A DNA stretch of 39,030 nt from Spirochaetota bacterium (GTDB taxonomy: Bacteria; Spirochaetota; Spirochaetia; Treponematales; Rectinemataceae). Positions 2,330 through 34,498 of this stretch are shown here, in pieces. Location of the stretch: contig VKGY01000008.1 of assembly GCA_008080685.1 (NCBI GenBank), forward strand, positions 3,452-42,481, given 5' to 3'. The position numbers were made by a program, and so were the translations under genes. Within the stretch, counting starts at the first letter, position 1, and every line of letters starts with the position of its first letter. The notes beneath the pieces were generated by a model. It saw only the letters and a list, made by a program, of their open reading frames with translations, was not told the origin of the DNA and searched no databases.

Positions 2330-2359
2330 CAAAAAATTGGATCGCCTGGCCATTTGGTC

Positions 2360-4664: not shown

Positions 4665-5321
4665 ATGGTAGATCTATTATACGAAGACAAAGAAATCCTC
4701 GTTATCGATAAACCTGCCGGCCTTCCTTCCCAGCCTGGAGAGAGGGTTAAAAGCTCCGTCGTTTCCGTCTGCGAAGCTCAGTTTGGATTTCATCCCTTTC
4801 CCGTCCATCGCCTCGACAAAGAAACCGCCGGTTGCATGATCGTGGCCAAGGACAGCGCCTCCGCCACGCGCTGGGCCTTGAGGATAGGAATGAGGGACAT
4901 ACGGAAGAGGTACCGCGCCATCTGCTTGGGGGCTCCAGGCAAGGAAAAGGGTTCCTACTCCGATGATCTTCTGGTGGACGGCAAGGTGCACGCCGCGTGT
5001 ACCGAGTTTTTCGTCCTATCCCATTTTGGGAGCTTGGACGGGATACAAGGCTATTTTTCCCTTATGGAATTCGAGCTTGGCACGGGACGGATCCATCAGA
5101 TCCGACGCCATGCGGCGATGCACGGCCACCCGATTCTCTGGGACGATAAGTACGGCAATTTTCCCCTCAATCGCAGGCTGAAACGTGAACTTGGCATCGG
5201 AAGACTTCTGCTCTGGGCGTTCGCCCTGGATATTCCTGGATTCCCAACCCTCAGATCCGCCATGCCTGCTCATTTTTCGGCTTTCATGAAGGCATGGGAA
5301 TCCCCTCAGGAGACACAATAA
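4665..5321 (+). CDS. RNA pseudouridine synthase, RluA family
   Basis: Starts MVDLLYEDKEILVIDKPAGLPSQPGE; catalytic HRLDKETAG motif; GRIHQIRRHAAMHGHPILWDDKYG. Confidence 0.9.
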   Translation: MVDLLYEDKEILVIDKPAGLPSQPGERVKSSVVSVCEAQFGFHPFPVHRLDKETAGCMIVAKDSASATRWALRIGMRDIRKRYRAICLGAPGKEKGSYSDDLLVDGKVHAACTEFFVLSHFGSLDGIQGYFSLMEFELGTGRIHQIRRHAAMHGHPILWDDKYGNFPLNRRLKRELGIGRLLLWAFALDIPGFPTLRSAMPAHFSAFMKAWESPQETQ

Positions 5322-5713
5322 TGACTACGGCGAAACTTTTTATCCTTTCCCACGGTGCCGCCTGGGTCCTGCCGGACGGACGGGTGATCAAGATCCCCGG
5401 CTTCCATTCCTCGTGGCTCGCCTCCCACGGGGCGATCGCCGGAGGGGCGACCAATACAGGGGAGTTTGTTAAAAAAACCGGGTGGGTTTCCGCTGTCCTG
5501 CATGAGGAAGGATATCTCGAGCTCATCCTCCGAAGCTCAGCCGATCCTAGGCAGCGCGATTGCTTGTGGGGTATTCTCTCGGCCAACGCCGATTCCCTTC
5601 AGCGGGTAGTGGTCATGGTCTTGGACAAGGACGAGCACAAGACTTTCCTGAAACCCATGCCTGGATCGAGACAGGAATTCGAGGCCGTCATGGCCGGTCC
5701 TTCAGGGGTTTAG
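5321..5713 (+). CDS. Conserved hypothetical protein
   Basis: ORF starting MTTAKLFILSHGAAWVLPDG; start overlaps the upstream stop (TAATG). No recognised domain. Confidence 0.6.
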   Translation: MTTAKLFILSHGAAWVLPDGRVIKIPGFHSSWLASHGAIAGGATNTGEFVKKTGWVSAVLHEEGYLELILRSSADPRQRDCLWGILSANADSLQRVVVMVLDKDEHKTFLKPMPGSRQEFEAVMAGPSGV

Positions 5714-6496
5714 GGACAAATCTTTTATATCCAAGGCGAGCAATCTGGCGTTGCGGGGAGCGTTCGCCTTGGCATGGTTGTTGAACGCTACATACACCCG
5801 CTCGACTTTTTTGGAAAGGGAAATGAGCTTGCGCGCCCTTTCCTTGAGTTCCTTGGGGGAGTAGTCGTAGTCGTAGCGGGAGCTTGCGTTTCCTCCCCAC
5901 CAGGTGGCTTCGTTCCTGCCGTGGAGTCGGTAATAAACCATGGAGCTGGTGAGCCTGTCGGTCTCGGGCGGCAAGCCCTGCAGTTCCGGCCTATCGAGCA
6001 TGGCAAGGCAAATTTTCCTTTTCTGCAGCTCTTCGAAGACGCTTTCCTTGTACCAGGCGGAGTTTCGGAATTCCACCACCAAGGGAAAGGGCGAAAGGGC
6101 GTCGCAAAGCTGACCCAGGTAGCTCCTGTTTTCCGCAGTATAGGCGTAGCTATAGGGCAGCTGGATAAGAACTGCGGCTAGTTTCCCCCGGCTGCGCAAG
6201 GCTTCCGCGGCGAAGGAAAACCGCTGGGCGTCCTTGGTCCAATCCGGTCCTCTCTCGTGGGTGAGACCGCGGTAGGCTTTAAGGGAAAATAGGAATTCCG
6301 CGGGCGTTTGGGAAGCCATGGCTGTGAGGAGCTCTGGCTTAGGCATGGCATACCAGGAGTAGTCAATCTCCACGAAGGGGAAAATGAGGGAATAAAAGCG
6401 CAGGTATTCGGTCTGCCTAAGATCCTTGGGATAGAACAGCTCCCGCCATTCCGCATAGGAGTATCCGCAGGTTCCGACATAGAAGGTTGATTCCAT
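5702..6496 (-). CDS. DUF72 (YecE-like) family protein
   Basis: FYVGTCGYSYAEWRELFYPKDLRQTEYLRFYSLIFPFVEIDYSWY; LPYSYAYTAENRSYL; VVEFRNSAWY; VYVAFNNHAKANAPRNARLL. Confidence 0.92.
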   Translation of the reverse strand: MESTFYVGTCGYSYAEWRELFYPKDLRQTEYLRFYSLIFPFVEIDYSWYAMPKPELLTAMASQTPAEFLFSLKAYRGLTHERGPDWTKDAQRFSFAAEALRSRGKLAAVLIQLPYSYAYTAENRSYLGQLCDALSPFPLVVEFRNSAWYKESVFEELQKRKICLAMLDRPELQGLPPETDRLTSSMVYYRLHGRNEATWWGGNASSRYDYDYSPKELKERARKLISLSKKVERVYVAFNNHAKANAPRNARLLALDIKDLSLNP

Positions 6497-6575
6497 CTGG
6501 CCTCTGGGGCCAGTATATCATGTTGCATAGATTCCATGATATGGATATCTTTTTACAATCCGGAGGTGTAGGACG

Positions 6576-7169
6576 ATGATAATTAGCTTTATTGCCAAGG
6601 TTCTTGGCGCCGCCACGTCTTTTTACATGATCATCTGCGCACTTCGGGTCTTCATGACCTGGATGCCGGGCATGAATGTGGGGCGAGCGGGGGTTTTCGC
6701 AAAATCCATAGTCGATCCCTATCTGTCCTACTTTTCCAAATTCAAGCTTTTCAAGACTGAACGGGTGGATTTCAGCCCCATCGTAGCGCTCTCAGTCCTG
6801 TCCGTGGCAAACAACTTCTTCTCCTCCGTCGCAATATCCGGAAGGATTAGCCTTGGCTTTCTGGCCAGCCTTGTCCTCGGTGCATCCTGGTCAGCCGTTT
6901 CTTTTATACTTTCCTTCCTTGCCTTATGTACCCTGGCAAGGGTTCTTGTCCTGGTCTTCAAGTGGAACAGCTTCCATCCCCTCTGGAACGTGATCGACGC
7001 CATCGTCAATCCTGTCCTCCACGCAATCAACATGAGGATTTATCGAGGCCGAGCGGTGGATTATCTCCAGGGCCTCATCACGGGATTTATTTTCCTGGCG
7101 GTTCTCAGGGCAGCGGGCGGCGCCCTGGTGGGCCTTTTGTCACGGCTTTTGGCCTCCCTGCCCTTTTAA
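6576..7169 (+). CDS. YggT family membrane protein
   Basis: Duplicated YggT repeats (YMIICALRVFMTWMPG; ALCTLARVLVLVFKWNSFHPLWNVIDAIVNPVLHAI). Confidence 0.8.
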   Translation: MIISFIAKVLGAATSFYMIICALRVFMTWMPGMNVGRAGVFAKSIVDPYLSYFSKFKLFKTERVDFSPIVALSVLSVANNFFSSVAISGRISLGFLASLVLGASWSAVSFILSFLALCTLARVLVLVFKWNSFHPLWNVIDAIVNPVLHAINMRIYRGRAVDYLQGLITGFIFLAVLRAAGGALVGLLSRLLASLPF

Positions 7170-7182
7170 GGAGGTAAAGAGC

Positions 7183-7476
7183 ATGCTCGATTCCAAGTCG
7201 CGGAGTTTCTTGACCGGCCTTGCTTCCACAATACCGGCGGGTATCCATCTCGGGAAACAGGGACCGACCGAAGCCCTTGCAGTACAGCTGGCGACCCTGC
7301 TGGAACGGCACGAATTGGTGAAGCTTAAATTTGTCGACTTCAAGGACGACAAGAAAACCATCGCCGCCGATCTGTCCGTTGCCACCGCATCGGAGTTGGT
7401 ACGGGTCATCGGCAACATGGCCATCTTCTATAAGAAAAATCCCGATCCTGACAAGAGAACCATCAGGCTTCCGTAA
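7183..7476 (+). CDS. yhbY: YhbY/CRM-domain RNA-binding protein
   Basis: GIHLGKQGPTEALAVQLATLLERHELVKLKF...TASELVRVIGNMAIFYKKNPD; Shine-Dalgarno AAGGAGG upstream. Confidence 0.9.
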   Translation: MLDSKSRSFLTGLASTIPAGIHLGKQGPTEALAVQLATLLERHELVKLKFVDFKDDKKTIAADLSVATASELVRVIGNMAIFYKKNPDPDKRTIRLP

Positions 7477-9733
7477 CACCTCGCTTGACGAAGAGAGGAT
7501 AGGCCGCGGCCAAGAACTTAAGTCCCTTATAATGGAGATCCGGATCCAACAGGGCTTGGCTCAAGACCAATTCGGTCTGGGGATCCGTTCCTGTCCGGAC
7601 TATGAATCCCGCCATTCCCTTACCTGATTCTCCCTCTTCCCCGAAGAGGGTTTCCACGTCTTTCTGCCACTGCTCCAGGGTCCTGTTGTCCACGATTATG
7701 TCCGAAGCAGTGGATCTGAGCTGGGAAACCCCATCGTTCTCATCTTCCATGAATGCTGAATACAAGGGATAGAATTCCTTGGAAATTTCCATGATCGAAG
7801 CCATGGCGATGACGATTTCATCCGAGACGAAGGCGGGAGGATCGTCGTTCTTGAGGCTTGAGACCAGGGCGGGGAGGGAGTTTTTCGATTTCAGGACTTC
7901 CAGGGCGTAGGCGGCGGAGATCTTCACCCGGGGATTCTTGCTTTTCATGAGTATCGATTCGATGAGGGGTATAGACTCCTCGTCTCCGAGTTGCGCGAGG
8001 GAGATCATGACGCTGCCTTGCAGCATGTAGTCTTCGACTTCCAAGGACCTTCTCAAGGTGGGAATAGCCTCTGCCGTCCCATGCTTGCCCAGTATGCGGG
8101 CGGCCACGTAGGAGGTGGTGAAACTGTGGGTCTCCACTTCCTTAAGGAGAAAGCGTATTACTTTTTGGGATAGATGGGACATGGATTCGAAGGCTCGCAG
8201 AGCTTCCATCCTCACCTGGAACCGCGGTGACCTCAGGTAGTCCAGAAGTTCTTCCTGGGAAAGCAGGCTGGCCTTTCTTCCTAGTTCCTGGATGAGCTTC
8301 ACTTCCTGCTTGGGGTTGGCGCTCCTGTCCAGGCGCATGAGGAGGTCGAAGGCACGGAGATCCCTTAAGGAGAACATGACGCCCAGGGACTGGGTGACGC
8401 TGGCCGAGCCCAATCTCCGCAAGGCTTGCATGAAGTAGATCGAAATGCCAAGGAGGATGCATAGGAAGCCATAGAAGAGGCGGTAGGAGGCGGTGTGGCT
8501 GTATCCAAGAGCGCCAAAGCCGTCCAGCAAAAGCCCGCCGAATCCCGACCCTAGGGATCCTCCCAATCCAAAGGCGAAATAATAGATCACCGATAGGTCT
8601 AAAGTCTTTTCTTTTGGAACCAGGGAAAAATAGTAGGTTTGCCCGGCATTTTCTTCTCCTGCGAATCCGAAGGCGGAGATGAAATGGACACCGGCGAGAA
8701 AAAGAGCGGTTGCGGCGCTGGAAGAGAAGAACGCTGAGGTGCCGGGGATGAGGGCCATAGGCAGGAAGCTTACCAGCCCAATTGAGCTGAAGATGATGAA
8801 GAGGGGCTTCGAGCCCAGGCGGTCAACCACAAGCCTGGATAGGAGTCCCATGACCACCGAGCCCATGCTGGACAGGAGGGCGTAGACCATGACAGCGTCG
8901 TCGCCTTGGGAGAAAACATCCTTCGCGTAAACCGGGAGGAAGGATCTTCCCATGCCCGACACGAAGGACAAGGCCATGAAAAGAAAGATGAAGCGCCGAA
9001 AGGTTGGATCCTTGACGGCTTCCCTGGTGGTTTCCAGAAGAGAACTGCCCGAGTCGGGGTTGTAGTTTGTGGGTTCGGGGGTTTTGAGAAGGTAGTAGCA
9101 TCCTAAATACCCTGACCCTAGGCCGATGCACACACCCAGGGAATAGGACCAAGGCGTGGCGTTCTCGCCAAGGAAAAGGGCTACCAAGAGGCCGCTGGTC
9201 ATGGAGGCCAGGGAATTGATTATGGAAGTATTGGTCATGAATTCGCCGCGGTCCGAGCGGGGTTTTTCCCCGCCTCCGGTGGCGAGGAATCCCACCACGG
9301 GATTGTTGCCGATCAAGGCAATGCCCCTGAAAAAGGCGAATCCCGCCACGCCCGTGATGAGGAGGCCGATAGCGACACCGTTCATGCCCCGGGCGGCGAA
9401 GAGGGGGGCCATCAGGGTTGGGATGAAGGCGGTATATCTTCCAACCCACGCCCACCCGAAGGTCCAGACGATAGGTTTCTTCCTCACGACTTTCTTGCCG
9501 ATGGGCATCATGAAGAAGGTGGCGTAGGCAATGGCGTTTAACACCCCAACCAGGGCGTTGGAAGCGCCCATGCGGATTGCGAAGAGGGTTACGAAGGATC
9601 CTGAAAGAAACACGAAGGAAAAGGAATTTAGAAAATTGAAGGTATAGTAAGCTTTTCTCGCTTGTCCGAGCCTCTTTGGGGAAAGCGGGGAAGGTTTGGC
9701 CGCGCCGCCCCTTCTCTGTTCCTGACTAGCCAT
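7463..9733 (-). CDS. MFS transporter with C-terminal HEAT-repeat domain
   Basis: 12-TM MFS region, then helical repeats (LRSPRFQVRMEALRAFESMSHLSQKVIRFL; AARILGKHGTAEAIPTLRRSLE; GSVMISLAQLGDEESIPLIESIL). Likely start MASQEQRRG. Confidence 0.85.
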   Translation of the reverse strand: MASQEQRRGGAAKPSPLSPKRLGQARKAYYTFNFLNSFSFVFLSGSFVTLFAIRMGASNALVGVLNAIAYATFFMMPIGKKVVRKKPIVWTFGWAWVGRYTAFIPTLMAPLFAARGMNGVAIGLLITGVAGFAFFRGIALIGNNPVVGFLATGGGEKPRSDRGEFMTNTSIINSLASMTSGLLVALFLGENATPWSYSLGVCIGLGSGYLGCYYLLKTPEPTNYNPDSGSSLLETTREAVKDPTFRRFIFLFMALSFVSGMGRSFLPVYAKDVFSQGDDAVMVYALLSSMGSVVMGLLSRLVVDRLGSKPLFIIFSSIGLVSFLPMALIPGTSAFFSSSAATALFLAGVHFISAFGFAGEENAGQTYYFSLVPKEKTLDLSVIYYFAFGLGGSLGSGFGGLLLDGFGALGYSHTASYRLFYGFLCILLGISIYFMQALRRLGSASVTQSLGVMFSLRDLRAFDLLMRLDRSANPKQEVKLIQELGRKASLLSQEELLDYLRSPRFQVRMEALRAFESMSHLSQKVIRFLLKEVETHSFTTSYVAARILGKHGTAEAIPTLRRSLEVEDYMLQGSVMISLAQLGDEESIPLIESILMKSKNPRVKISAAYALEVLKSKNSLPALVSSLKNDDPPAFVSDEIVIAMASIMEISKEFYPLYSAFMEDENDGVSQLRSTASDIIVDNRTLEQWQKDVETLFGEEGESGKGMAGFIVRTGTDPQTELVLSQALLDPDLHYKGLKFLAAAYPLFVKRGVTEA

Positions 9734-23136: not shown

Positions 23137-24444
23137 ATGTCAGACACACTGGTCTCCGAAATTCTTGGATTTGCCCAGGGCTCCGCCGATGCCTTTGACT
23201 GCATCGCCCAGGATATTTGGGAGCATCCCGAGGTAGCCTTTAATGAGGAAAGGTCCTCCCGGCTCTATATGGAGAGGCTGGCTTCCCAAGGCTTCGAGGT
23301 GACTGAGTTCTCCGAGCTTCCCCATTCCTTCATGGCCGAGAAGGGGAGGGGTTCTGGACCTCTCATCGCGTTCATGGGGGAGTACGACGCCTTGCCGGGT
23401 ATGTCCCAAGCCTGCGTGCCTGAGCGCCGCCCCACGGCGGAAGGGGCTCCGGGCCATGCCTGCGGGCATAATCTGTTGGGGGCGGGAAGTCTCGCCGCGG
23501 CGGAAATCCTGGCTGCGGCCATGGAGAGCATGGGGGTTGCGGGGCGGGTGCGTTCGGCCATCCTTACCTGGCATCCCGCGGATGTGAACACGCCCCATCG
23601 GTATCTCACCAGCGCGAACTTGGCGGTGGTTTTTTCCTTCCGTGGCCGCGCCAGCCACGCGGGCATGGCCCCCTATGCGGGGCGCTCAGCCTTGGACGCT
23701 GCCCAGCTCTTCAATATTTCCTTGGAGTTCATGCGCGAGCACCTTGAGCCTGGGGTTATGCTCCACTATGTGGTGTCCGATGGAGGGCAGCGTCCCAACA
23801 TCGTGCCGGAGCGGGCGGCCACCTTCCTCTACATCCGCGCTCCCTCCGCCGCCATGGTCAGGGCGGTGATGAAGCGGGTTTCGAAGGCGGCCCGGGGGGC
23901 CTGCCTCATGACGGAGACTTCTCTTTCCGTCGAGATTAAGCACGGAAAGTGCGACTACCGGCCCAACGATGTCATCCAGGACGCCCTTCTTGAGGCGATG
24001 CGGGTCCTCCCCCTCCCCAAGCCCAGTCCCGAGGAAAGGGAATTCGCCAAGAAGCTTCAGGCCACAGTGGCCAAGGAGGACAGGCCGGCGACCCTCCTGC
24101 CCATCGGGGTCTCTGCGAGCCTTCTTAAGTCTGCGATCCACGGCGAGGTGGGGGATTTCGGCCGGGGCAGGCGCATCGGAGGCTCCCTGGACACGGGGGA
24201 TGTCTCCTATGTCGTTCCTGTGGGGCAGATGAACGCCGCAACCTGGCCTCTCGGGGTGGGCGCCCACACCTGGCAGTCCTGCGCCGCCTCGGGCTCCTCC
24301 TGGGCCTTCAAGGCTATGCGCTGGGCCGGAACCGCGATGGCCTTGGCGGGCTTCCGCCTTGCCTCCGAGCCCGCTCTCCTTGCCGCCGCCCAGGCCGAAT
24401 TCCGCGCCTCTGCAGTCCCCTACCGCTCCACCATGGATCAATAG
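23137..24444 (+). CDS. M20/AbgB-like amidohydrolase (aminobenzoyl-glutamate utilization type), possibly internally deleted
   Basis: AFMGEYDALPGMSQACVPERRPTAEGAPGHACGHNLLGAGSLAAA; FSFRGRASHAGMAPYAGRSALDA; expected catalytic PAEEGG segment absent between AGRVR and SAILTWHPADVN. Confidence 0.85.
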   Translation: MSDTLVSEILGFAQGSADAFDCIAQDIWEHPEVAFNEERSSRLYMERLASQGFEVTEFSELPHSFMAEKGRGSGPLIAFMGEYDALPGMSQACVPERRPTAEGAPGHACGHNLLGAGSLAAAEILAAAMESMGVAGRVRSAILTWHPADVNTPHRYLTSANLAVVFSFRGRASHAGMAPYAGRSALDAAQLFNISLEFMREHLEPGVMLHYVVSDGGQRPNIVPERAATFLYIRAPSAAMVRAVMKRVSKAARGACLMTETSLSVEIKHGKCDYRPNDVIQDALLEAMRVLPLPKPSPEEREFAKKLQATVAKEDRPATLLPIGVSASLLKSAIHGEVGDFGRGRRIGGSLDTGDVSYVVPVGQMNAATWPLGVGAHTWQSCAASGSSWAFKAMRWAGTAMALAGFRLASEPALLAAAQAEFRASAVPYRSTMDQ

Positions 24445-24474
24445 TCAACACGGGGTCAGACCCCATAAATTGAC
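24444..24474. repeat. REP-like nested inverted repeat GTCAA-cac-GGGGTCAGACCCC-ataaa-TTGAC
   Basis: Read directly; immediately follows the M20 stop. Confidence 0.75.
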
Positions 24475-24505
24475 TTTTCTACACGTTCAGGTACTCTCAA
24501 AATAA

Positions 24506-24540
24506 GACAGGGTAACAAGATAATCAGGATTTGCATGATT
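24506..24540 (+). repeat. Degenerate CAGGAT-type repeat, left edge of defence island
   Basis: GACAGGGTAACAAGATAATCAGGATTTGCATGATT, resembles the inverse complement of 33119-33154. Confidence 0.6.
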
Positions 24541-24650
24541 TTTTAGCCACGGTCTTACTCTATTCCCTTCGATGCTTTTGACAAGCGCGGCGTCGCATGA
24601 GATAATCATCCTCAATAATGCCTCAATCAGAAAATGAAAGGAAAGTTTAA

Positions 24651-24923
24651 ATGGCTCGGGGTTGGATAGTCCTCTCCGTCCAGAATCCCTGGAGTGACTT
24701 GATCTGTCGTGGAATAAAGGACGTTGAGAACCGTAGTTGGCCAACCGACTACCGTGGGAAGCTCTATATCCATTCGAGCGGGCGTCCGATGGAATCTGCC
24801 GAAGCCAGGCTGCTCGATGCGGCTATCCCTGAGCAGCTCCAGGCAGTCACCGAGCTCCAAAGACGGCGCGCCCAGGAAGAAGCTCGGCGGCGGCTCTCGG
24901 AAGTACTATGCAATTCTTGCTGA
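24651..24923 (+). CDS. ASCH-domain protein, probably truncated
   Basis: GWIVLSVQNPWSDLICRGIKDVENRSWPTDYRGKLYIHSSGRP matches ASCH N-terminus; ends at 90 aa, short for the family. Confidence 0.7.
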   Translation: MARGWIVLSVQNPWSDLICRGIKDVENRSWPTDYRGKLYIHSSGRPMESAEARLLDAAIPEQLQAVTELQRRRAQEEARRRLSEVLCNSC

Positions 24924-24980
24924 CGTGTGAGGTGCAGTACCGGATGACACTCCCATCATCCAATTCGCGAGGAATAATTC

Positions 24981-25979
24981 ATGGCTGATATAGACCTCCT
25001 TACATCCTTCAGTGAAGTTGTCGCACTAATAGAGCAATCTCGCCAGCGTGCTCTCCAAGCAGTTAACACCGGCTTGATCGACCTCTATTGGCAGGTCGGA
25101 GCGTACATCAGCAAGAAACTCGCAAACGCTACGTGGGGCGAGGGTGTCGTCGACCAGCTGGCGGAATACCTTACTCGAACCCAGCCCGGTTTGCGGGGTT
25201 TTACGCGATCCAATCTTTTCCGAATGCGTCAATTCTTTGAGACGTATAGGAATGAGGAGAAAGTCGCGCCACTGGTGCGACAATTGCCGTGGACACACAA
25301 CCTGATCATTTTAGGACAGAGCAAAGGACCGGAGGAACGCGAGTTCTATGTCAGGATGACTATCCGCGAGCATTGGTCCAAGCGTGAACTTGAGCGTCAA
25401 TACAATGCATCCCTTTACGAACGTAGCGTGCTCAATCCACCGCAGGCCACAGCCGTGCTTGCACAATCCCGGGCTGAGGCGCTTGGCGCATTCAAGGATG
25501 CCTACATGGTCGAGTTCCTTGATTTAGCGCCGGCACACAGCGAAAGCGATCTCCATAAGGGCTTGGTAACCCGCCTCAAGGACTTCCTCATCGAGCTTGG
25601 GAGGGATTTCTGCTATATAGGCTCAGAGTACCCCCTGCAAGTCGGCAGACGAGACTTTGCCCTCGACCTCCTCTTCTTCCATCGTGGATTGAACTGCCTC
25701 GTCGCAATCGAGCTCAAGGTCGGACGTTTCGAGCCGGAGGATCTGGGCAAACTCGGCTTTTATTTGGAATGTCTCGATCGTGACCATAAGAAACTGCACG
25801 AAAACGCGGCGATCGGACTTCTCCTCTGCGCAAGCAAGGATCAGGAAGTAGTCGAATACAGCCTGAGCCGGAGTCTTTCACCCGCATTGGTGGCCGAGTA
25901 TCAGACGAAGCTGCCGGAAAAACGATTGCTCGAGGCCAAGTTGTTGGAGTTCTATACGTTGGAGGCAGCGGATGACTAA
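24981..25979 (+). CDS. YhcG-family (DUF1016) PD-(D/E)XK nuclease domain protein
   Basis: LYWQVGAYISKKLANATWGEGVVDQLAEYL...PWTHNLIILGQSK...FALDLLFFHRGLNCLVAIELKVGRFEPEDLGKLGFYLECLDR (D...ExK core). Confidence 0.93.
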   Translation: MADIDLLTSFSEVVALIEQSRQRALQAVNTGLIDLYWQVGAYISKKLANATWGEGVVDQLAEYLTRTQPGLRGFTRSNLFRMRQFFETYRNEEKVAPLVRQLPWTHNLIILGQSKGPEEREFYVRMTIREHWSKRELERQYNASLYERSVLNPPQATAVLAQSRAEALGAFKDAYMVEFLDLAPAHSESDLHKGLVTRLKDFLIELGRDFCYIGSEYPLQVGRRDFALDLLFFHRGLNCLVAIELKVGRFEPEDLGKLGFYLECLDRDHKKLHENAAIGLLLCASKDQEVVEYSLSRSLSPALVAEYQTKLPEKRLLEAKLLEFYTLEAADD

Positions 25980-27603
25980 ACCTAAACTCGAACTAACCTG
26001 GATCGGCAAAGAAACCCGCCCTCGTCTCGAGCCCCGCATCCTCATCGAGGTACCAGCGAAAAGTCATCACGCCGCTTATCGCGTTGGCGACACCGACCTA
26101 TTCGATAACAAGCTAATCTTTGGCGACAACCTTCTCGCCCTGAAGGCTCTCGAGGATGAGTACACCGGTAAGGTGAAGTGTGTTTTCATCGATCCGCCTT
26201 ACAACACCGGGTCAGCATTTGAGCATTATGACGATGGCGTTGAGCATTCTCTGTGGCTTGGTTTGATTAGGGACCGTCTTGAGATAATCAAGCGATTGTT
26301 ATCCTGGGATGGAAGTTTATGGATTACCATAGATGATAACGAGTGTCATTATTTAAAAATAGTCTGTGATGAAATATTTGGCAGGATTAACTTTGTCGCC
26401 AATTGCATCTGGCAGAAAAAGTACGCACCTGCCAATGATGCGATTTGGATAAGTGACAGCCACGATCACGTACTGGTATATGCAAAACAAAAGGAACAAT
26501 GGCGACCGAACGCGCTTGAACGGTCATCGGACTCGGATGCAGCATATAAAAATCCTGATAATGACCCAAGAGGCAATTGGAAGGCGGGTGACTACACATG
26601 CAATAAGTCCGCCGATGCTCGTCCGAATCTCTATTACCCAATAATACACCCCTTGACGGGCTCGGAAGTATGGCCCAAAAGAACGGCTGTTTGGAGATAT
26701 TCGCAAGAAACACATCTTCGCTACGTCCAAGAAGGACGGATTTGGTGGGGCAAAGATGGGCAGAACCGAGTACCTGCCTTCAAGCGATACCTTTCGGATA
26801 TTGATGAAGGCGTGGTTCCTCAGACGATTTGGGAGTGGACTGAAGTCGGGCATACCCAAGATGGTAAGAAAGAGCAAATAGCGTTAAATCCCCATGACCC
26901 ATTTGGCACGCCAAAACCAGAGCGCTTGCTTCAACGAGTGGTAGAGTTGGGTACCAATCCCGGCGACCTAGTCCTTGACTCCTTCGCCGGTTCTGGCACT
27001 ACTGGCGCTGTCGCGCACAAGATGGGGCGGCGCTGGATTATGGTTGAGCTTGGCGAGCACTGTCACACTCACATTATCCCACGGCTTAAGAAGGTCATAG
27101 ATGGACAGGATCCGGGTGGTATCACTGAGGCTGTTGGTTGGAAGGGTGGCGGTGGTTTTAGGTATTATAAGCTCGCGCCTTCTCTCCTTGAAAAAGATAA
27201 GTGGGGCAATTGGATAATAAATAAGGATTACAACGCCGCTATGCTCGCCGAGGCTCTCTGCAAGCTCGAGGGCTTCACCTACGCTCCCTCGGAGACAGAG
27301 TATTTTATCCACGGGCATTCAACGGAGTCTGACTTCATCTGGGTGACCACGCAGAATCTCGGGCACGAGCAACTCGCCGCCCTTTCGGAGGACGTTGGCT
27401 CCAACCGAACTCTCCTCGTCCTCTGCTCGGCATACCGGGCTGACACCAAACAGTTTCCCAACCTCACTATCAAGAAGATCCCGAACGCTGTCCTCTCGAA
27501 ATGCGAGTGGGGACATGACGACTACAGCCTCCAGGTGGAGAACCTCCCTGCGGCGCCGAAACCGAAGGTAGATCAGCCGGATCTCTTTGGGGGTGAATCA
27601 TGA
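25972..27603 (+). CDS. Type III DNA methyltransferase (Mod), beta-class adenine-N6
   Basis: GDNLLALKALEDEYTGKVKCVFIDPPYNTGSAFEHYDDG then VLDSFAGSGTTGAVAHKMGRRWIMVELG: DPPY before FxGxG. Confidence 0.93.
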   Translation: MTKPKLELTWIGKETRPRLEPRILIEVPAKSHHAAYRVGDTDLFDNKLIFGDNLLALKALEDEYTGKVKCVFIDPPYNTGSAFEHYDDGVEHSLWLGLIRDRLEIIKRLLSWDGSLWITIDDNECHYLKIVCDEIFGRINFVANCIWQKKYAPANDAIWISDSHDHVLVYAKQKEQWRPNALERSSDSDAAYKNPDNDPRGNWKAGDYTCNKSADARPNLYYPIIHPLTGSEVWPKRTAVWRYSQETHLRYVQEGRIWWGKDGQNRVPAFKRYLSDIDEGVVPQTIWEWTEVGHTQDGKKEQIALNPHDPFGTPKPERLLQRVVELGTNPGDLVLDSFAGSGTTGAVAHKMGRRWIMVELGEHCHTHIIPRLKKVIDGQDPGGITEAVGWKGGGGFRYYKLAPSLLEKDKWGNWIINKDYNAAMLAEALCKLEGFTYAPSETEYFIHGHSTESDFIWVTTQNLGHEQLAALSEDVGSNRTLLVLCSAYRADTKQFPNLTIKKIPNAVLSKCEWGHDDYSLQVENLPAAPKPKVDQPDLFGGES

Positions 27604-29477
27604 GCGAAACCGGGCAGGCATTGACGGAGCAGGAACAGCTGTTCGCATCCTTGCTTGAACGGTTGCGGAACGGAGACGAGTGCCACGATCTCGAGGTGAA
27701 ACGCGGTTCCTCCATCGATATAAGCATCATGGAAACAATCTGCGCCTTTAGCAATGAACCAGGGATGGGAGGTGGTTACCTGATTTTGGGCGTTGCGCGC
27801 AGCGACGATCAGTTGTTTCCGGACTACGAAGTGGTCGGAGTTGACGATCCCGACAAGCTTCAGAGTGATTTGGCCAGCCAATGTGCCGATCGGTTCAACG
27901 TGGCGATTCGTCCTCGGATTTGGCGACTCGCCTTCGGCGGAAAGAATGTGCTCTTGGTTTCTGTCTCCGAGGCCCAGTCGGCTGAGAAACCCGTCTATCT
28001 CAAAAGCCGTGGCTTGCCTAGAGGAGCATTCCGGAGGATCGGTTCGAGCGATCAGACCTGCACTGAGGATGATGTCTCACTCCTGTTCCAAGGTCGCGGT
28101 CACAAAGCTTACGAAGACTCGATCCTCGAGGATATGTCTCTCGAGCTTGATATCTCCGCTGAGGCGATCCAGAGCTATCGACAGCGGCGTGAGCATGTAA
28201 ACCCGACCGCGCCGGAGCTTGCGTGGTCGGATAACGAGTTGCTCTTCGCCTTAGGCTCGACCCAGCGAATGAAGGATGGCAGCTTTTCTCCAACGATATG
28301 CGGACTCTTATGCTTTGGAAAGGATACCGCGCTTCGAAGGCTCGCTCCCATGGCTCGAGTCGACTACATCCGCGTCCCGGGAAGAACATGGATCGAGAAC
28401 CCCGACACGCGCTTTGAAACAGTGGAGATGCGGGGCCCCTTGCTGACACTCATCCCTCGGGTCATCGCCGCTATTCTCGACGACCTGCCCCGCGGGTTCT
28501 CCCTGGAAGATGGGGTATTTCGCAAGGAAGTGCCACTTGTTCCCGACGTCGTCATCCGAGAGGCGGTTGTGAATGCGCTCATGCACCGGAATTACCGGAC
28601 AAAACAGCCCGTTCAGATCATCCGCTACAGCAACCGTTTGGAGTTCCGCAATCCTGGGTGCTCGCTTAAGCCCGACGATCAGCTGGGCGAGGCCGGGTCG
28701 GTGAATCGCAATGAGAAGATAGCCGCCATTCTCCACGAATGCAGTCTCGCCGAGACTAAGGGTTCCGGTATCCGGGTCATGCAGGAACTGATGGAAAGAG
28801 CTAATCTTTCAAGCCCTTATTTCGAGTCCAGCAGGGAATCAGACAGCTTCGTCCTTACCCTGCTCACCCACCACTTCATGGATGCCAGCGACATACGCTG
28901 GCTTTCAAGGTTCAAGGATCATCAACTGAGTCCGGAGGAAGCCAAGGCCCTTGTGTTCCTGAAGGAGTTTGGCGCCATCAGCAACGCCGCATATAGGGAT
29001 ATCAACAAAGTCGATACATTCCACGCATCGTCCGCTCTTCGGCGTCTTAGGAATAGCGGCATCTTGGTACAGAAGGGCAAGGGAATGGCGACCTACTACC
29101 AAGGCGGCCCTGAGTTCATGGCATCATTGAATCTCCAGGACTCCGAGGGCTTATCCCCCAACCTCGAGGGCTTATCCCCCAACCTCGAGGGCTTATCCCC
29201 CAACCTCGAGGATCTTCCTCCGGAGCTTCAGGCTTTGGTAGCAGACCTCGGCGCGAGAGCAAAACCCGAAGCAAGCCATAGGGCGATACTCGCATTATGC
29301 GAATACCAAGTCTTGTCCAGGAAACAATTAGCGCACATCCTTGGGCGAAGGGAGGATACTGTCGGAGATCTCCTTAAGGAGTTGCTCGATCGTGGCGAAT
29401 TGGAACTGAGCTTCCCCGAAGTCCCTAACCACCCTCAACAGAAGTACAGGAAGGTAAGCAAGGGGGCAAGACCATGA
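27600..29477 (+). CDS. AlbA_2 (Schlafen-type) DNA-binding / HATPase_c_4 ATP-binding protein
   Basis: ECHDLEVKRGSSIDISIMETICAFSNEPGMGGGYLILGV (AlbA_2); VREAVVNALMHRNYRTKQPVQIIRYSNRLEFRNPGCSL...GSGIRVMQELM (COG2865-like); C-terminal wHTH-like region. Confidence 0.88.
   Translation: MSETGQALTEQEQLFASLLERLRNGDECHDLEVKRGSSIDISIMETICAFSNEPGMGGGYLILGVARSDDQLFPDYEVVGVDDPDKLQSDLASQCADRFNVAIRPRIWRLAFGGKNVLLVSVSEAQSAEKPVYLKSRGLPRGAFRRIGSSDQTCTEDDVSLLFQGRGHKAYEDSILEDMSLELDISAEAIQSYRQRREHVNPTAPELAWSDNELLFALGSTQRMKDGSFSPTICGLLCFGKDTALRRLAPMARVDYIRVPGRTWIENPDTRFETVEMRGPLLTLIPRVIAAILDDLPRGFSLEDGVFRKEVPLVPDVVIREAVVNALMHRNYRTKQPVQIIRYSNRLEFRNPGCSLKPDDQLGEAGSVNRNEKIAAILHECSLAETKGSGIRVMQELMERANLSSPYFESSRESDSFVLTLLTHHFMDASDIRWLSRFKDHQLSPEEAKALVFLKEFGAISNAAYRDINKVDTFHASSALRRLRNSGILVQKGKGMATYYQGGPEFMASLNLQDSEGLSPNLEGLSPNLEGLSPNLEDLPPELQALVADLGARAKPEASHRAILALCEYQVLSRKQLAHILGRREDTVGDLLKELLDRGELELSFPEVPNHPQQKYRKVSKGARP
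29145..29207 (+). repeat. Minisatellite, 3 x 21 bp (GAGGGCTTATCCCCCAACCTC), encodes (EGLSPNL)x3
   Basis: Three perfect copies read directly, plus a diverged fourth (EDLPPEL). Confidence 0.97.
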
Positions 29478-30493
29478 GCGATGACTCCAGTCCTCAGAAC
29501 AAGATAATTCTTTACCAGGCCGAGAATGGAAAGGTTCGAGTCGATGTGGAGTTCGACGGGGATACAGTATGGCTCTCTCAGGCCCTAATGGCCGAACTCT
29601 ACCAGACAAGCCCGCAGAACATCACGCAGCATGTAAGAGAGATATATCGCGACGGAGAATGTTCCGAGGAGTCAACCTGTAAGGAATCCTTACAAGTTCG
29701 CCTTGAGGGGCAACGGCGGGTCCGGAGATCCATAAAGCTCTACAATTTGACCATGATCATGGCGGTTGGATTTAGGGTCAGGTCTGAGCGTGGTGTCCTG
29801 TTCCGCCAGTGGGCCGTGGAGCGCCTGCGTGAGTACGCGCTAAAGGGGTTTGCCCTGGACGACGAGCGATTGAAGGCTGGCGGCGGTGGGCTCTATTTCG
29901 ATGAGCTCCTCGCTCGCATCCGCGATATTCGCTCTTCGGAGAAGATTTTCTGGAGAAAGGTGCTCGACATCTACGCAACGAGCATCGACTACGATCCGCG
30001 TGCCGAAGCTTCGCAGGCCTTTTTCGCCACCGTGCAGAACAAGATGCATTGGGCCATCCACGGCCATACTGCCGCCGAGTTGGTCGTGTCGCGATTAGAT
30101 CCCGAATCGCCGAATCTGGGCATCACGAATTGGCCCGGAACCGCCCTTCGCAAGTCCGATGCCTCGATTGCCAAGAATTACCTGACCGAAAAAGAGCTGG
30201 ATGAGCTGAATCGGATAGTCACGGCCTACCTTGAGTTCGCAGAGCTACAGGCAATGAGTCGGAAACCCATGACCATGGAGGCTTGGATCACTAAATTGGA
30301 TGATTTTCTTAAGTTGTCCGACAGGGAAATCCTGACCCACGCGGGTGCGATCTCCCACGAAGTGATGCTCGGTAAGGTGGACCAGGCATATCAGCGTTAT
30401 CAAGCGCTAATGCGCGATGAACCGACCAGTATGGAAAAAGACATGCAGGAACTGGCAAAGCGGGTAAAAATACCTCGGAGGGTAAATGATTGA
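29474..30493 (+). CDS. RhuM-family protein
   Basis: VDVEFDGDTVWLSQALMAELYQTSPQNITQHVREIYRDGE...YNLTMIMAVGFRVRSERGVLFRQWAVERLREYALKGFALDDERLK. Confidence 0.93.
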   Translation: MSDDSSPQNKIILYQAENGKVRVDVEFDGDTVWLSQALMAELYQTSPQNITQHVREIYRDGECSEESTCKESLQVRLEGQRRVRRSIKLYNLTMIMAVGFRVRSERGVLFRQWAVERLREYALKGFALDDERLKAGGGGLYFDELLARIRDIRSSEKIFWRKVLDIYATSIDYDPRAEASQAFFATVQNKMHWAIHGHTAAELVVSRLDPESPNLGITNWPGTALRKSDASIAKNYLTEKELDELNRIVTAYLEFAELQAMSRKPMTMEAWITKLDDFLKLSDREILTHAGAISHEVMLGKVDQAYQRYQALMRDEPTSMEKDMQELAKRVKIPRRVND

Positions 30494-33101
30494 ACGCATA
30501 GTCAATACCATCGCAGGACGACTCTCCCTGCGCGAACCGCAGCGAAAGTCGCTTGAAATCCTCTCCCGGATCACCGAGCTAGTGAAGCCCTCAAAGGAGA
30601 CTGATCCGGATGTGGCTCTCAAGATCATCCAGTCGGAGTTTCCGCATGTTACTGGATTTGATCGGGATTTCGTATCCCTCTGTTTCGCCCTGGCCACAGG
30701 AGTCGGGAAAACGCGACTCATGGGTGCTTTCATTAGTTATCTCCACCTCGCGCACAAAGTGAACCATTTCTTTGTTCTTGCACCTAACTTGACGATCTAC
30801 AACAAGCTCATCGCGGATTTCACCGCCGGAACGGCTAAGTACGTCTTCAAGGGCATCGCCGAGTTCGCGCAAGACCCACCCCAGATCATCACGGGGGACA
30901 ACTATGAGCGCGCCGACGTGGCGCGGAGCGGGATCCTTATCGAGGGCGGAATCCAGATCAATATCTTCAACATATCGAAGATCAACAGCGAAGTGCGCGG
31001 GGGCAAGTCTCCAAGGATCAAGCGTCTTTCGGAGTACATCGGAGAAAGTTACTTCGAGTACCTGGCAGCCCTGCCCGACCTTGTGCTCCTCATGGATGAG
31101 TCCCATCGCTATCGTGCCAGCGCTGGCGTGAAGGCGATCAACGAACTCAAGCCCATTCTCGGGCTCGAGCTTACAGCGACTCCCTTTGTGGAATCCGGGA
31201 CTAAGAGAATCACCTTCCAGAATGTCCTCTACCACTATCCCCTCGCGCAAGCGATGGCGGATGGCTTTGTCAAGGAACCGGCGGTCGTCACGCAGAAGAA
31301 CTTCCATCCCGACCAGGTCAGTCCCGAGGCACTGGAAAAGATCAAGCTCGAGGACGGGATCCGTGTGCATGAAAACACCAAGGTCCACCTCGAGACCTGG
31401 GCACGGCAAAACGATAAGCCAATCGTGAAACCATTCATGCTTGTCGTGTCAAAAGACACTACCCACGCGGACCAGCTCCAGAAGTTCTTGGAATCCGCAG
31501 ACTTCTTTTCAGGACGATACACCGGGAAGGTGATCCAGGTCCATTCAAACCAATCGGGAGAGGAGAAGGAAGAGGTCATTCAACGGCTCCTCGCCGTCGA
31601 AAGCCCCGACGAGCCTACGGAGATCGTTGTCCATGTGAACATGCTGAAAGAAGGATGGGACGTCACCAATCTGTACACCATCGTGCCCCTCCGCGCGGCA
31701 AACGCGCGGACCCTTGTCGAGCAATCCCTCGGACGCGGATTACGGCTTCCATACGGCAAACGAACAGGCGACCAGGCGGTCGATACCCTCCACATCATAG
31801 CCCACGATTCATTCCAGGCCATCGTGGACGAGGCCAACCGAGGGGATTCGGTCCTCAAGTTCCGAGCCATCGAGCTTGAACCTCACAAGCCTGGCGAACA
31901 ACTGAAGACCGTTGTGACTAATTCCAAGGTTGAGGAGTCCCTAAAGCAAGGCTCCCCCGCTGAACAGAAAATGAAGGAACTGATCTATACGGTAATCACA
32001 GAGAAAAAAGAACTGAAATCCTCCCAGGATTTATACAAGACTGAGGTGAAAGCTGCCATCGTGGCGGAAGCGAAAGCCCGGTTTGGAACCCCCCAAGCCG
32101 AGCTCGAAGGCATGGAGACCATCCCCGAAACGAGCGCACTCGTCGATAGCGTGATCACGAATCTCGTCGAAGGGACTATCGATATTCCTCGCATCATCGT
32201 CCTGCCGAGAGAGGGGAGCACTGTTAGCTTCCGGCCCTTTACCCTTGACCTCCGGAGCCTGCGGTATCAGCCCGTCTCCCGCGATCTTCTCATGCAGTTC
32301 CTGCGGACGAATGAACAACGGACTTTTAGCTTTTCTAAGGTTGGGGTCAAGGAAGCCAGGCTTGAGGATTACCTGGTCCGTGGTCTCATCGACGAGCCTG
32401 ATATCAGTTACGATGACCATGCAGAGCTCCTCTATGAGCTAGCCGGGCAAGTCGTCACCCACCTCCGATCCTACCTTTCAGTTGAGGAGGAGGTTCGCAA
32501 CGTCCTCCAATACCACCAGACCGACCTGGTCGCCTTTATCGCGGCGCAGATGCGAACGCACCGTTCAGTCTCCGATACCGGCTTTGAGGTCAAGGTGAGT
32601 CGAGGCTTTACCCCACTCAAAAAGAGCGCGGTCATAGTCGAGATGGGCTTTGAGTCGGTGGACTATCGACGTAGCGACTTCGACAAGTCCAAGATCGGAC
32701 GTATTCTATTCACAGGCTATCAGCGTTGCCTATATCCGGCAGTTAAGTTCAATTCCGATACCGAACGGCGCTTCTCCGCCATCCTCGAACGCGACGCGGA
32801 GAAGTGGTTCAAGCCTGCGAAAGGCCAGTTCCAGATCGTATACCAGGATGGACATCAGCATAGCGAATACATCCCGGACTTCGTTGCGGAAACCCGTCAT
32901 GTCATCTATATGGCGGAGACGAAGGCAAGGAACGAAATTGCCGATCCTGTTATCATCGCAAAGAAGCAAGCGGCTGAGGAGTGGTGCGGCCATGCCTCCG
33001 AGTACAATAAAAGTCTTGGGAAGAAGCCTTGGAGGTACCTCCTCGTTCCTCATGACCAGGTGCAAGACAATATGAGCTTGGCTGCTTTCGAACAGGCATA
33101 G
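30486..33101 (+). CDS. Type III restriction endonuclease subunit Res (SF2 helicase + PD-(D/E)XK)
   Basis: TGVGKTRLMGAF (motif I), LLMDESHRYR (motif II), MLKEGWDVTNLYTIVPLRAANARTLVEQSLGRGLRLP (motifs V/VI), C-terminal YIPDFVAETRHVIYMAETKAR. Confidence 0.95.
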   Translation: MIERIVNTIAGRLSLREPQRKSLEILSRITELVKPSKETDPDVALKIIQSEFPHVTGFDRDFVSLCFALATGVGKTRLMGAFISYLHLAHKVNHFFVLAPNLTIYNKLIADFTAGTAKYVFKGIAEFAQDPPQIITGDNYERADVARSGILIEGGIQINIFNISKINSEVRGGKSPRIKRLSEYIGESYFEYLAALPDLVLLMDESHRYRASAGVKAINELKPILGLELTATPFVESGTKRITFQNVLYHYPLAQAMADGFVKEPAVVTQKNFHPDQVSPEALEKIKLEDGIRVHENTKVHLETWARQNDKPIVKPFMLVVSKDTTHADQLQKFLESADFFSGRYTGKVIQVHSNQSGEEKEEVIQRLLAVESPDEPTEIVVHVNMLKEGWDVTNLYTIVPLRAANARTLVEQSLGRGLRLPYGKRTGDQAVDTLHIIAHDSFQAIVDEANRGDSVLKFRAIELEPHKPGEQLKTVVTNSKVEESLKQGSPAEQKMKELIYTVITEKKELKSSQDLYKTEVKAAIVAEAKARFGTPQAELEGMETIPETSALVDSVITNLVEGTIDIPRIIVLPREGSTVSFRPFTLDLRSLRYQPVSRDLLMQFLRTNEQRTFSFSKVGVKEARLEDYLVRGLIDEPDISYDDHAELLYELAGQVVTHLRSYLSVEEEVRNVLQYHQTDLVAFIAAQMRTHRSVSDTGFEVKVSRGFTPLKKSAVIVEMGFESVDYRRSDFDKSKIGRILFTGYQRCLYPAVKFNSDTERRFSAILERDAEKWFKPAKGQFQIVYQDGHQHSEYIPDFVAETRHVIYMAETKARNEIADPVIIAKKQAAEEWCGHASEYNKSLGKKPWRYLLVPHDQVQDNMSLAAFEQA

Positions 33102-33118
33102 GGGGAGAGGGTGTAATC

Positions 33119-33154
33119 ATTCCTGTCCATCCCGCCTATCTTGTGAATCCTGTC
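33119..33154 (-). repeat. Degenerate CAGGAT-type repeat, right edge of defence island
   Basis: Minus strand GACAGGATTCACAAGATAGGCGGGATGGACAGGAAT; compare 24506-24540. Confidence 0.6.
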
Positions 33155-33169
33155 AAAATTCCTTCTTCC

Positions 33170-34498
33170 CTAAGAAATCCTCGCGATGTAGTCGGCGCAG
33201 TTGCCGGAGATACGGAGCATCTGGGCGGCGGCCTCGTCCTGGTCGAAGCCTGTCATGCGGCGGTCCTTCACCACGGGGCGGCCGTCCACGTAGACGGAGA
33301 GAACGTTGTGCGGCCTCATGGCGTAAACGATCGTGGAGTGCCAGTCGTAGACGGGCTGGATGTTGAAATCGTCCAAGTCCACAAGGATGAAATCCGCCTT
33401 CTTGCCGGGCTCCAGGGAGCCAGTCTCGGCGCCCAGGCCAAGGGCCTCGGCGCCGCCCAAGGTGGCGGCCCGGACAGCATCCCGCGCCGCCACTATGCCG
33501 CGGTTCCGCTCCCGCACCTTCTGCATCTTGGGATAGACATTCAAGACCCCTTCCATGTCCATGCCGTTGCCGGAGAGGGGACCGTCCGTGCCGAGGCCCA
33601 GGGGCACGCCGGCCCCGGCGAACCTCCAGGCAGGGCAGATAAGCCTTCCCGATTTTGCGTTGGAGGCGGGGCAGTGGGCCACCCTAAGGCCCCGGGCCTT
33701 GGCGAGGCCTATGTCCTCATCGTCCACGAAAAGCATGTGGACAGCCAGAAGCCTGGGTGAAAGAAAACCGGGGATGGAGTCCAGGTAGCGCAGGACGGAT
33801 CCGCCCAGGGGGGCGAACGTTTCCTGCTCCGCGTCCATCTCCGCCACATGCATCATCACATCGACGTCCAGGGATTCCGCTTCCCGAGCGATGATGCCCA
33901 GGTGCTCGGCGTCCACCGTGTAGGGCGCGTGGGGGGCGAAACAAGGCTGGATGCGGGGATGGCCCTTCCAATCCTTGATGAAGCGGCGGGCGTACTCGAT
34001 GCCGCCGTAGCCTTCCGGGGCGTCGGGAGCGGCGTGGCCGAGGATAGTCTCGCCGAGGATGGCCTTAAGGCCCGACAGGTCCGTCGCCCTGGCCACCTCG
34101 TCCTCGAAGTAATACATGTCCGCGAAGGTGGTGGTGCCCGACCTCGCCATCTCGACGAGGCTGTGGAGGGCGGACCAATAGGTGAGGTCCCTATCCACCA
34201 AGTCCCGCTCCATGGGGAAGATGAAACGGGTCAGGCGGTCGGGCATATCCTCGCAGGCGCCCCGGAAGGCCGCCATGGAGATATGGGTGTGGGCGTTCAC
34301 AAAGCCCGGCATGGCAAATGCCCGGGGCGCTCGAACGCGCTGGACAGCCTCGCGCCTTTCTCCCTCGGCCGCGGGCCCCAGGGCGGAAATCCTTCCATCC
34401 TTGACCGCCACGAAACCCGGGGCGAAGACCTTCCACTCGGGATCCACCGTCACCACCGCCGCGGCTTCGACGATCAAATCATCGCGCATCCTGTCCAT
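33170..34498 (-). CDS. Amidohydrolase, SAH/MTA/5'-deoxyadenosine deaminase-like
   Basis: RAFAMPGFVNAHTHISMAAFRGACEDMPDRL...HAPYTVDAEHL...VAHCPASNAKSGRL...GLGTDGPLSGNGMDM. Confidence 0.85.
   Translation of the reverse strand: MDRMRDDLIVEAAAVVTVDPEWKVFAPGFVAVKDGRISALGPAAEGERREAVQRVRAPRAFAMPGFVNAHTHISMAAFRGACEDMPDRLTRFIFPMERDLVDRDLTYWSALHSLVEMARSGTTTFADMYYFEDEVARATDLSGLKAILGETILGHAAPDAPEGYGGIEYARRFIKDWKGHPRIQPCFAPHAPYTVDAEHLGIIAREAESLDVDVMMHVAEMDAEQETFAPLGGSVLRYLDSIPGFLSPRLLAVHMLFVDDEDIGLAKARGLRVAHCPASNAKSGRLICPAWRFAGAGVPLGLGTDGPLSGNGMDMEGVLNVYPKMQKVRERNRGIVAARDAVRAATLGGAEALGLGAETGSLEPGKKADFILVDLDDFNIQPVYDWHSTIVYAMRPHNVLSVYVDGRPVVKDRRMTGFDQDEAAAQMLRISGNCADYIARIS

What the first reader, a model, noticed from the sequence alone, without database searches (positions are those of the whole stretch)
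24651..33101. Five-gene translationally coupled defence-like operon: YhcG nuclease - Type III Mod - AlbA_2/ATPase - RhuM - Type III Res
Sequence shows consecutive overlaps of 8, 4, 4 and 8 bp (25972-25979, 27600-27603, 29474-29477, 30486-30493), so all five are probably co-translated. Mod and Res are recognisable by motif, but three extra genes are built in: a second PD-(D/E)XK nuclease (YhcG) in front, and AlbA_2/HATPase_c_4 plus RhuM between Mod and Res. A classical Type III system is only mod-res. Inference: the extra components form part of one extended anti-phage system (for example a sensor/abortive or regulatory arm) rather than being passengers. RhuM and AlbA_2 proteins are known to recur in defence islands, but I cannot say from here whether this exact cassette has been described.
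Basis: partly seen in the sequence, partly recalled or inferred. Interest (0 to 1): 0.85.

Follow-up and report, generated by a model that had tools for sequence, protein, structure and literature searches.

The report
Restriction operon with swappable defence cargo
The five overlapping genes are a horizontally acquired bacterial DNA-restriction system whose two core genes carry extra, interchangeable defence or toxin-like genes between and beside them, so the exact five-gene set looks like one of many combinations and not a fixed new machine.

Summary
In detail: five co-directional ORFs (YhcG, type III Mod, AlbA_2/HATPase_c_4, RhuM, Res) overlap by 8, 4, 4 and 8 bp at the stated coordinates; the operon starts at 24981 (24651-24923 is a separate ASCH fragment). 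It is a low-GC insertion of about 8.7 kb between two genes that are adjacent in two same-family genomes. The reading as one extended five-part system is not supported. In 73 related loci with both Mod and Res, the mod-res gap is either empty (25) or occupied (48), and 43 occupied gaps hold recognisable toxin, abortive-infection or candidate-defence families (RhuM, YhcG, PDDEXK_3, Fic, Abi_2, AlbA_2, Zeta, PIN, HEPN/MNT and others). Near-identical Mod-Res pairs carry different cargo, swapped at the mod stop and res start; cargo changes at least 40 times on the Res tree. Nearest relatives carry part of the set: YhcG-Mod-RhuM-Res, or Mod-AlbA-Res. Several loci keep truncated ends of mod or res beside cargo, apparent recombination scars. 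Best reading: a type III RM core with embedded, exchangeable second-line effectors, a type III counterpart of defences embedded in type I RM and BREX. The cargo's function is inferred, not shown.

The parts
24445..33170 (.). inserted segment carrying the operon, between the M20 peptidase gene (ends 24444) and the amidohydrolase gene (33170-34498, -)
   Evidence: In same-family genomes G020 (L148) and G022 (L149) the sequences either side are adjacent: window 23554-24444 aligns to L148 10142-11032 and 33232 onward aligns from L148 11147. Operon genes GC 0.51-0.555, GC3 0.55-0.67; flanking genes GC 0.605-0.652, GC3 0.78-0.90. Exact edges not resolved to the base.
24578..24606 (+). candidate sigma-70-type promoter (TTGACA-17-GATAAT, TG before the second hexamer)
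   Evidence: 11 of 12 consensus positions; the region gave 6 sites against 4.8 expected by chance, so only suggestive
24651..24923 (+). short ASCH-domain ORF upstream; not one of the five overlapping genes; probably a fragment
   Evidence: Pfam ASCH E=1.1e-05, profile positions 1-62 of 103 matched
24981..25979 (+). YhcG/DUF1016 PD-(D/E)XK nuclease, cargo in the position upstream of mod
   Evidence: Pfam DUF1016_N 1.2e-45 and YhcG_C 2.4e-52; PADLOC PDC-S02; 79% identical YhcG upstream of mod in L001; a 50% identical YhcG between mod 5' stubs in L130
25972..27603 (+). Mod, type III N6-adenine-type DNA methyltransferase subunit (core gene)
   Evidence: Pfam N6_N4_Mtase 1.4e-47; PADLOC MTase_III 3e-218; PDB type III Mod 6k0w 1.3e-50 and EcoP15I Mod 6.9e-33; DPPY at 74, FAGSGT at 338
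26419..26953 (+). Mod target-recognition region (about residues 150-327), swapped relative to L001
   Evidence: 24-40% identity to L001 Mod in residues 151-300, against 70-96% elsewhere; gap in the blastn match
27600..29477 (+). AlbA_2 (Schlafen-type) / HATPase_c_4 protein, slot cargo 1
   Evidence: Pfam HATPase_c_4 4.1e-15 and SLFN_AlbA_2 4.1e-13; PDB 2kyy N-domain 1.3e-38; same gene between Mod and Res in L099 and L002, and directly before Res in L098
29144..29211 (+). in-frame 21-bp repeat, 3 copies, in the AlbA_2 gene (SPNLEGL repeats)
   Evidence: the L002 assembly has a run of N at the same repeat
29474..30493 (+). RhuM-family protein, slot cargo 2
   Evidence: Pfam Virulence_RhuM 1.1e-107; PADLOC PDC-S05 5e-137; only copy in this genome; RhuM is the most frequent single slot occupant among relatives
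30486..33101 (+). Res, type III restriction (helicase-nuclease) subunit (core gene)
   Evidence: Pfam ResIII 1.2e-19; PADLOC REase_III 4.7e-208; EcoP15I Res match 4e-06; helicase motifs in 83 of 83 sequences
30486..30493 (+). cargo/res junction (8-bp overlap)
   Evidence: across relatives the commonest junction is a 4-bp NTGA overlap in which the res start supplies the upstream stop codon (29 cargo and 21 Mod junctions)

Best explanation
This is a horizontally acquired type III restriction-modification operon. Mod and Res are the core. Mod probably methylates adenine in an asymmetric site, and together with Mod, Res uses ATP to find and cut DNA carrying unmethylated sites (inferred from family membership). 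YhcG, AlbA_2 and RhuM are exchangeable cargo in two positions: upstream of mod, and between mod and res. The cargo is probably translationally coupled to the core genes through 4-8 bp overlaps. Most likely each cargo gene is a separable second-line effector, probably abortive or nuclease in type, covering invaders that escape restriction. Cargo is exchanged by recombination at the conserved ends of mod and res. Shown here: gene content, insertion into an otherwise intact site, cargo turnover with edges at gene boundaries, and scars in relatives. Inferred: translational coupling in vivo, RM activity, the cargo's effector role, and recombination as the exchange mechanism.
For: Core conserved across many phyla while the slot varies: 73 loci with both genes, 25 empty and 48 occupied, 43 of the 48 with a recognisable toxin, Abi or candidate-defence family. 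Swaps are precise: L060 (Abi_2) and L072 (PDDEXK_3) share 92-94% DNA identity to within 2 bp of the end of the mod stop codon and again from 1 bp before the res start, with no match between; likewise L007/L008, L012/L027, L020/L068. At least 40 state changes on 75 labelled leaves. Scars: repeated 5' ends of mod between upstream cargo in L012, L031, L052 and L130 (three copies of nt 1-286, 92-95% identical), res 5' stubs in L030 and L045, a mod 3' stub in L045, a res 3' stub in L098. Empty chromosomal site and deviant composition. Published parallels: DarTG2 between hsdS and hsdR (PMC12255303), TgvAB inside hsd acting independently of HsdR (PMC11411939), RhuM and DOC proposed as toxins in RM operons (PMC3710099).
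Against: No experiment. YhcG is at the same place in L001 at 79% identity, so it may be a longer-term partner than the slot genes. The window has no scar of its own. Some cargo families, AlbA_2 and PDDEXK_3 among them, have no toxicity shown in anything I read. The sample is the 80 best of at least 573 Res relatives, many from fragmented MAGs. The RhuM model gave no PDB match at E <= 0.001, so its effector role is unsupported structurally. Cargo retains a little phylogenetic signal (40 changes against a shuffle mean of 47).
Confidence: 0.66

Rival explanations
1. Guarded toxin (PrrC-like): the cargo proteins, or some of them, are held inactive by the Mod-Res complex and released when a phage inhibits or overwhelms restriction, so core and cargo are mechanistically coupled and not merely co-expressed.
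For: EcoprrI/PrrC is the known precedent (PMC3874165, PMC2610378). Cargo families are largely toxin-like. A same-family relative, L099, has an RloC-like protein upstream of Mod-AlbA-Res: AAA_13, Walker A, CxxC, and an R-x3-E-x51-H motif fitting the published RloC triad. Res-proximal, co-translated placement would suit stoichiometric control.
Against: Very different folds occupy the same slot next to near-identical Mod-Res, which makes a specific protein-protein restraint for each hard to maintain. Several cargos come with their own antitoxin-like partner (Fic or Zeta with a small ORF, BrnT-like with DUF2283, MNT with HepT). TgvAB works when HsdR is inactivated (PMC11411939).
Confidence: 0.18
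2. One integrated five-component anti-phage system.
For: Tight overlaps throughout and a shared atypical GC composition; YhcG conserved next to Mod in L001.
Against: Five-gene set not found elsewhere; closest relatives lack AlbA (L001) or RhuM (L098, L099); the slot is empty in 25 of 73 loci; each of the three extra families occurs without the other two in the same slot elsewhere.
Confidence: 0.06
3. Cargo genes stabilise the element: toxin-antitoxin-like genes between mod and res act as addiction modules that keep the RM operon from being lost, with little direct role in phage defence.
For: TA-type pairs in the slot of relatives (BrnT-like + DUF2283, MNT + HepT, UPF0175 + DUF3368, PIN); the operon is an insertion; relatives lie on plasmids.
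Against: The window's own cargo (YhcG, AlbA_2, RhuM) are not classical TA pairs, and PADLOC holds YhcG and RhuM as candidate defence genes.
Confidence: 0.1

Closest known systems
Classical type III RM (EcoP15I/EcoP1I, mod-res)
   Same: Mod and Res subunits with recognised catalytic motifs; mod precedes res; Mod matches solved type III Mod structures
   Different: Extra genes embedded between mod and res and upstream of mod; Res is only distantly related to EcoP15I Res
Type I RM with embedded genes (DarTG2 between hsdS and hsdR, PMC12255303; TgvAB in V. cholerae VPI-2, PMC11411939; C. jejuni rlo/mlo ORFs, PMC5183652)
   Same: A conserved RM core with variable, often toxin-like, genes between subunit genes; the hsdS-hsdR site was itself called a potential recombination hotspot
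   Different: Here the core is type III, the slot is mod-res, cargo edges coincide with gene boundaries in near-identical pairs, and stubs of core-gene ends accompany cargo in some loci
EcoprrI/PrrC (latent anticodon nuclease inside a type IC operon, PMC3874165, PMC2610378)
   Same: A second-line effector gene embedded in an RM operon; an RloC-like gene sits beside the Mod-AlbA-Res operon of L099
   Different: No PrrC/RloC in the window; silencing of cargo by Mod-Res is untested
Genes embedded in Hma and BREX loci (guilt-by-embedding, Payne et al., cited in PMC12255303 and PMC11411939)
   Same: Same idea of defence genes nested inside another defence operon
   Different: Different core systems; I could not read the Payne paper, so whether it covers this type III slot is unknown
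RhuM-like and DOC-like toxins linked to RM operons (PMC3710099)
   Same: RhuM in an RM operon, proposed there as a toxin in multilevel defence
   Different: Described there alongside PrrC-like proteins; the main text has no occurrence of 'type III restriction'

Membership tests
Type III restriction-modification system | Mod subunit with N6_N4 methyltransferase motifs (DPPY, FxGxG) | tested here: met
Type III restriction-modification system | Res subunit with SF2 helicase motifs | tested here: met
   GVGKT, DESH, TATP, QSLGRG in the window; first three in 83 of 83 sequences; PADLOC REase_III
Type III restriction-modification system | PD-(D/E)XK nuclease motif at the C end of Res | tested here: inconclusive
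   PDFVAETRHVIYMAETK at 797 in the window; my regular expression caught only 15 of 83 sequences, so conservation of the motif is not demonstrated
Type III restriction-modification system | ATP-dependent cleavage between two inverted unmodified sites, one-strand methylation | not testable with these tools
   needs SMRT sequencing and cleavage assays
Embedded-defence RM operons | Conserved RM core with unrelated defence-type genes between core genes in different genomes | tested here: met
   48 of 73 loci occupied, 43 with recognisable families
Embedded-defence RM operons | Embedded genes function as defence | not testable with these tools
   no phage assays; PADLOC lists YhcG and RhuM as candidates only
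PrrC/EcoprrI-type guarded effector | HEPN anticodon nuclease with ABC ATPase in the RM operon | tested here: not met
   none of the five window proteins has it; a candidate is present only in relative L099
DISARM class 1 / DrmD-helicase systems | DrmD-type SNF2 helicase next to the methylase | tested here: not met
   present upstream of Mod in many relatives but no such gene beside the window's operon

The most novel reading that the evidence does not exclude
The ends of mod and res are an exchange platform for this type III lineage. Cargo genes are gained and swapped by crossovers at core-gene ends, leaving truncated mod or res ends as scars, and arrays of several cargo units can build up. 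The res start (NTGA) supplies the stop codon and translational coupling for whatever ORF lands upstream, making the slot a plug-in site for new effectors.
Probability: 0.4. Interest if true: 0.72.

Novelty: new variant of a known kind. Interest (0 to 1): 0.52.

Why it matters
Embedded defences are documented for type I RM, BREX and Hma; I found no account, in the papers searchable here, of an equivalent slot in type III systems. A slot with sharply defined edges and scars gives a way to discover new effectors by looking between mod and res, and makes testable how defence operons trade modules while keeping translation coupled. It also warns against naming each gene combination as a separate defence system.

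Tried and rejected
Conserved five-gene system: rejected by neighbourhoods of the 80 Res relatives and by Res searches of 99 relatives and 394 genomes of the order (overlapping sets) and an AlbA search of 296 genomes of the phylum. AlbA-Res fusion in L002: rejected, the 1440-aa frame runs through a run of N at the AlbA repeat, so it is a scaffold gap; for the same reason absence of RhuM there is not certain. RhuM toxin fold: AlphaFold on 12 sequences gave pLDDT 71.8, pTM 0.48; Foldseek's best PDB hit, DdrC, had E=2.8e-3 with TM 0.2-0.3, uninformative. RhuM and YhcG have no solved relatives by sequence. Scars in the window itself: none found. ARMADA/YprA systems: that paper concerns a different helicase family, not pursued. 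A literature search for type III RM with RhuM returned nothing.
Full report
Observation. Five co-directional ORFs lie exactly where stated and overlap by 8, 4, 4 and 8 bp. Pfam and PADLOC confirm YhcG/DUF1016, type III Mod, SLFN_AlbA_2 with HATPase_c_4, RhuM and type III Res. Mod matches solved type III Mod structures and EcoP15I Mod; Res matches EcoP15I Res weakly. Catalytic motifs are present. The region named in the finding begins at an ASCH fragment ORF, not at the operon, which starts at 24981.

The operon is an insertion. In two genomes of the same family, G020 and G022, the M20 peptidase and amidohydrolase genes that flank the window's operon are adjacent. Operon genes have GC 0.51-0.555 and GC3 0.55-0.67, against 0.605-0.652 and 0.78-0.90 for flanking genes. 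L001, from another genus of the family, carries its version next to the same amidohydrolase and transporter genes. G020 and G022 belong to the genus of L001's genome (G012) and lack a Res match, so either the operon is old at this site and was lost there, or it entered the same site more than once; I cannot tell which.

Neighbourhood survey. Window proteins and ORF calls were mapped on these and on extra spirochaete loci. In 73 loci with both genes, the gap between mod stop and res start is bimodal: 25 empty (-7 to 205 bp) and 48 occupied (349-2375 bp). Occupants, from representative Pfam scans and clustering: RhuM 9, YhcG 8, PDDEXK_3 7, Fic 4, Abi_2 4, AlbA_2 3, Zeta 2, PIN-type 2, and one each of BrnT-like, HEPN/MNT, Bro-N and AAA; 5 unassigned. 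Not every member was scanned individually; some labels rest on clustering or tblastn, and loci with two cargo genes were given one label.

Closest relatives. L001 is YhcG-Mod-RhuM-Res, with YhcG 79%, Mod 70%, Res 81%, but RhuM only 45% identical. L099 is Mod-AlbA-Res with 4-bp and 8-bp junctions. L098 begins inside AlbA and runs straight into Res. L002 is Mod-AlbA-[N gap]-Res. None has the five-gene set. Against L001, Mod is also swapped in its target-recognition region (24-40% identity at residues 151-300, 70-96% elsewhere).

Turnover and edges. On a tree of 82 Res proteins, slot state changes at least 40 times over 75 labelled leaves; shuffled labels average 47. Occupied versus empty is more conserved (12 changes against 21). 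Pairs with near-identical Res differ in cargo: L060 (Abi_2) and L072 (PDDEXK_3), 92-94% DNA identity in the flanks, match to within 2 bp of the end of the mod stop codon and again from 1 bp before the res start, with nothing between; L007 (RhuM)/L008 (Fic), L012 (AAA)/L027 (YhcG) and L020/L068 behave alike.

Junctions. Across relatives, res usually begins NTGA; its start codon plus next base supply a TGA stop to the gene upstream in another frame. This 4-bp overlap was assigned in 29 cargo junctions and 21 Mod junctions; the window, L001 and L099 use 8 bp. The script preferred overlapping start codons where there was a choice. This suggests, but does not prove, that coupling is preserved whatever the cargo.

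Scars. Searching each locus with its own mod and res found extra copies mostly of gene ends: 5' ends of mod upstream of mod in L012 (three), L031 (three) and L052 (one); three copies of mod nt 1-286, 92-95% identical, in L130 between cargo genes including a YhcG; res 5' stubs in L030 and L045, a mod 3' stub in L045, and a res 3' stub in L098. A few short interior matches also appeared (L067, L072, L014) and look like chance or repeats. The order stub, cargo, full gene fits single-crossover insertion or tandem duplication at core-gene ends. The window has no such scar.

Mechanism. Mod-Res is most likely a working type III RM system. The cargo most likely acts as second-line effectors. Direct parallels are TgvAB, embedded in a type I operon and protective when HsdR is inactivated (PMC11411939), and DarTG2 between hsdS and hsdR (PMC12255303). 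A guarded, PrrC-like arrangement remains possible; an RloC-like protein beside the L099 operon, with Walker A, CxxC and an R-x3-E-x51-H motif fitting the published RloC triad, shows that this class can join the operon. RhuM has been proposed as a toxin in RM operons (PMC3710099), but my structural test was uninformative.

Novelty. The parts are known and the embedding principle is known for type I RM, BREX and Hma. What I did not find described is the mod-res slot in type III systems, with interchangeable cargo, sharp edges and scars. Literature coverage was limited to open-access papers, and the Payne et al. embedding study could not be read, so this is a claim of not found, not of absence.

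Noticed in passing
L024:3601-8258 and similar loci (27 of 80): A DrmD-like SNF2 helicase of about 950 aa, often with an AIPR/AbiU-like or SMC-type ATPase gene, lies upstream of Mod in many relatives; also annotated on plasmids (L107, L109). Looks like a recurrent larger system; absent from the window.
   Followed up: partly
L099:13839-16469 (-): RloC-like protein (AAA_13, Walker A, CxxC, R-x3-E-x51-H) directly upstream of Mod-AlbA-Res in a same-family genome.
   Followed up: yes
L130 (reverse complement) 2005-8421: Array of three truncated mod 5' ends, each exactly nt 1-286, between cargo genes including YhcG and RhuM pieces; identical ends could mean site-specific insertion or copying.
   Followed up: partly
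L045:8367-8956: Double slot: YhcG, then a res 5' stub joined to a mod 3' stub with a 5-bp overlap, then RhuM and Res.
   Followed up: partly
L106 (NZ_CP100694.1 6419-16247): Salmonella IncF-type plasmids carry SNF2-IS256-Abi-Mod-Res close to floR and tet(A) resistance genes.
   Followed up: no
L104:9256-12281 and L105:8319-11282: Relatives of the AlbA_2 protein (40-42%) sit beside phage-type integrase genes without Mod or Res, so the family also occurs alone in likely mobile elements.
   Followed up: partly
window 29144-29211: In-frame 21-bp triplicate repeat in the AlbA_2 gene; could vary in copy number without shifting the frame.
   Followed up: no
window 24452-24466: Palindromic GGGGTCAGACCCC just inside the upstream edge of the insertion.
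   Followed up: no
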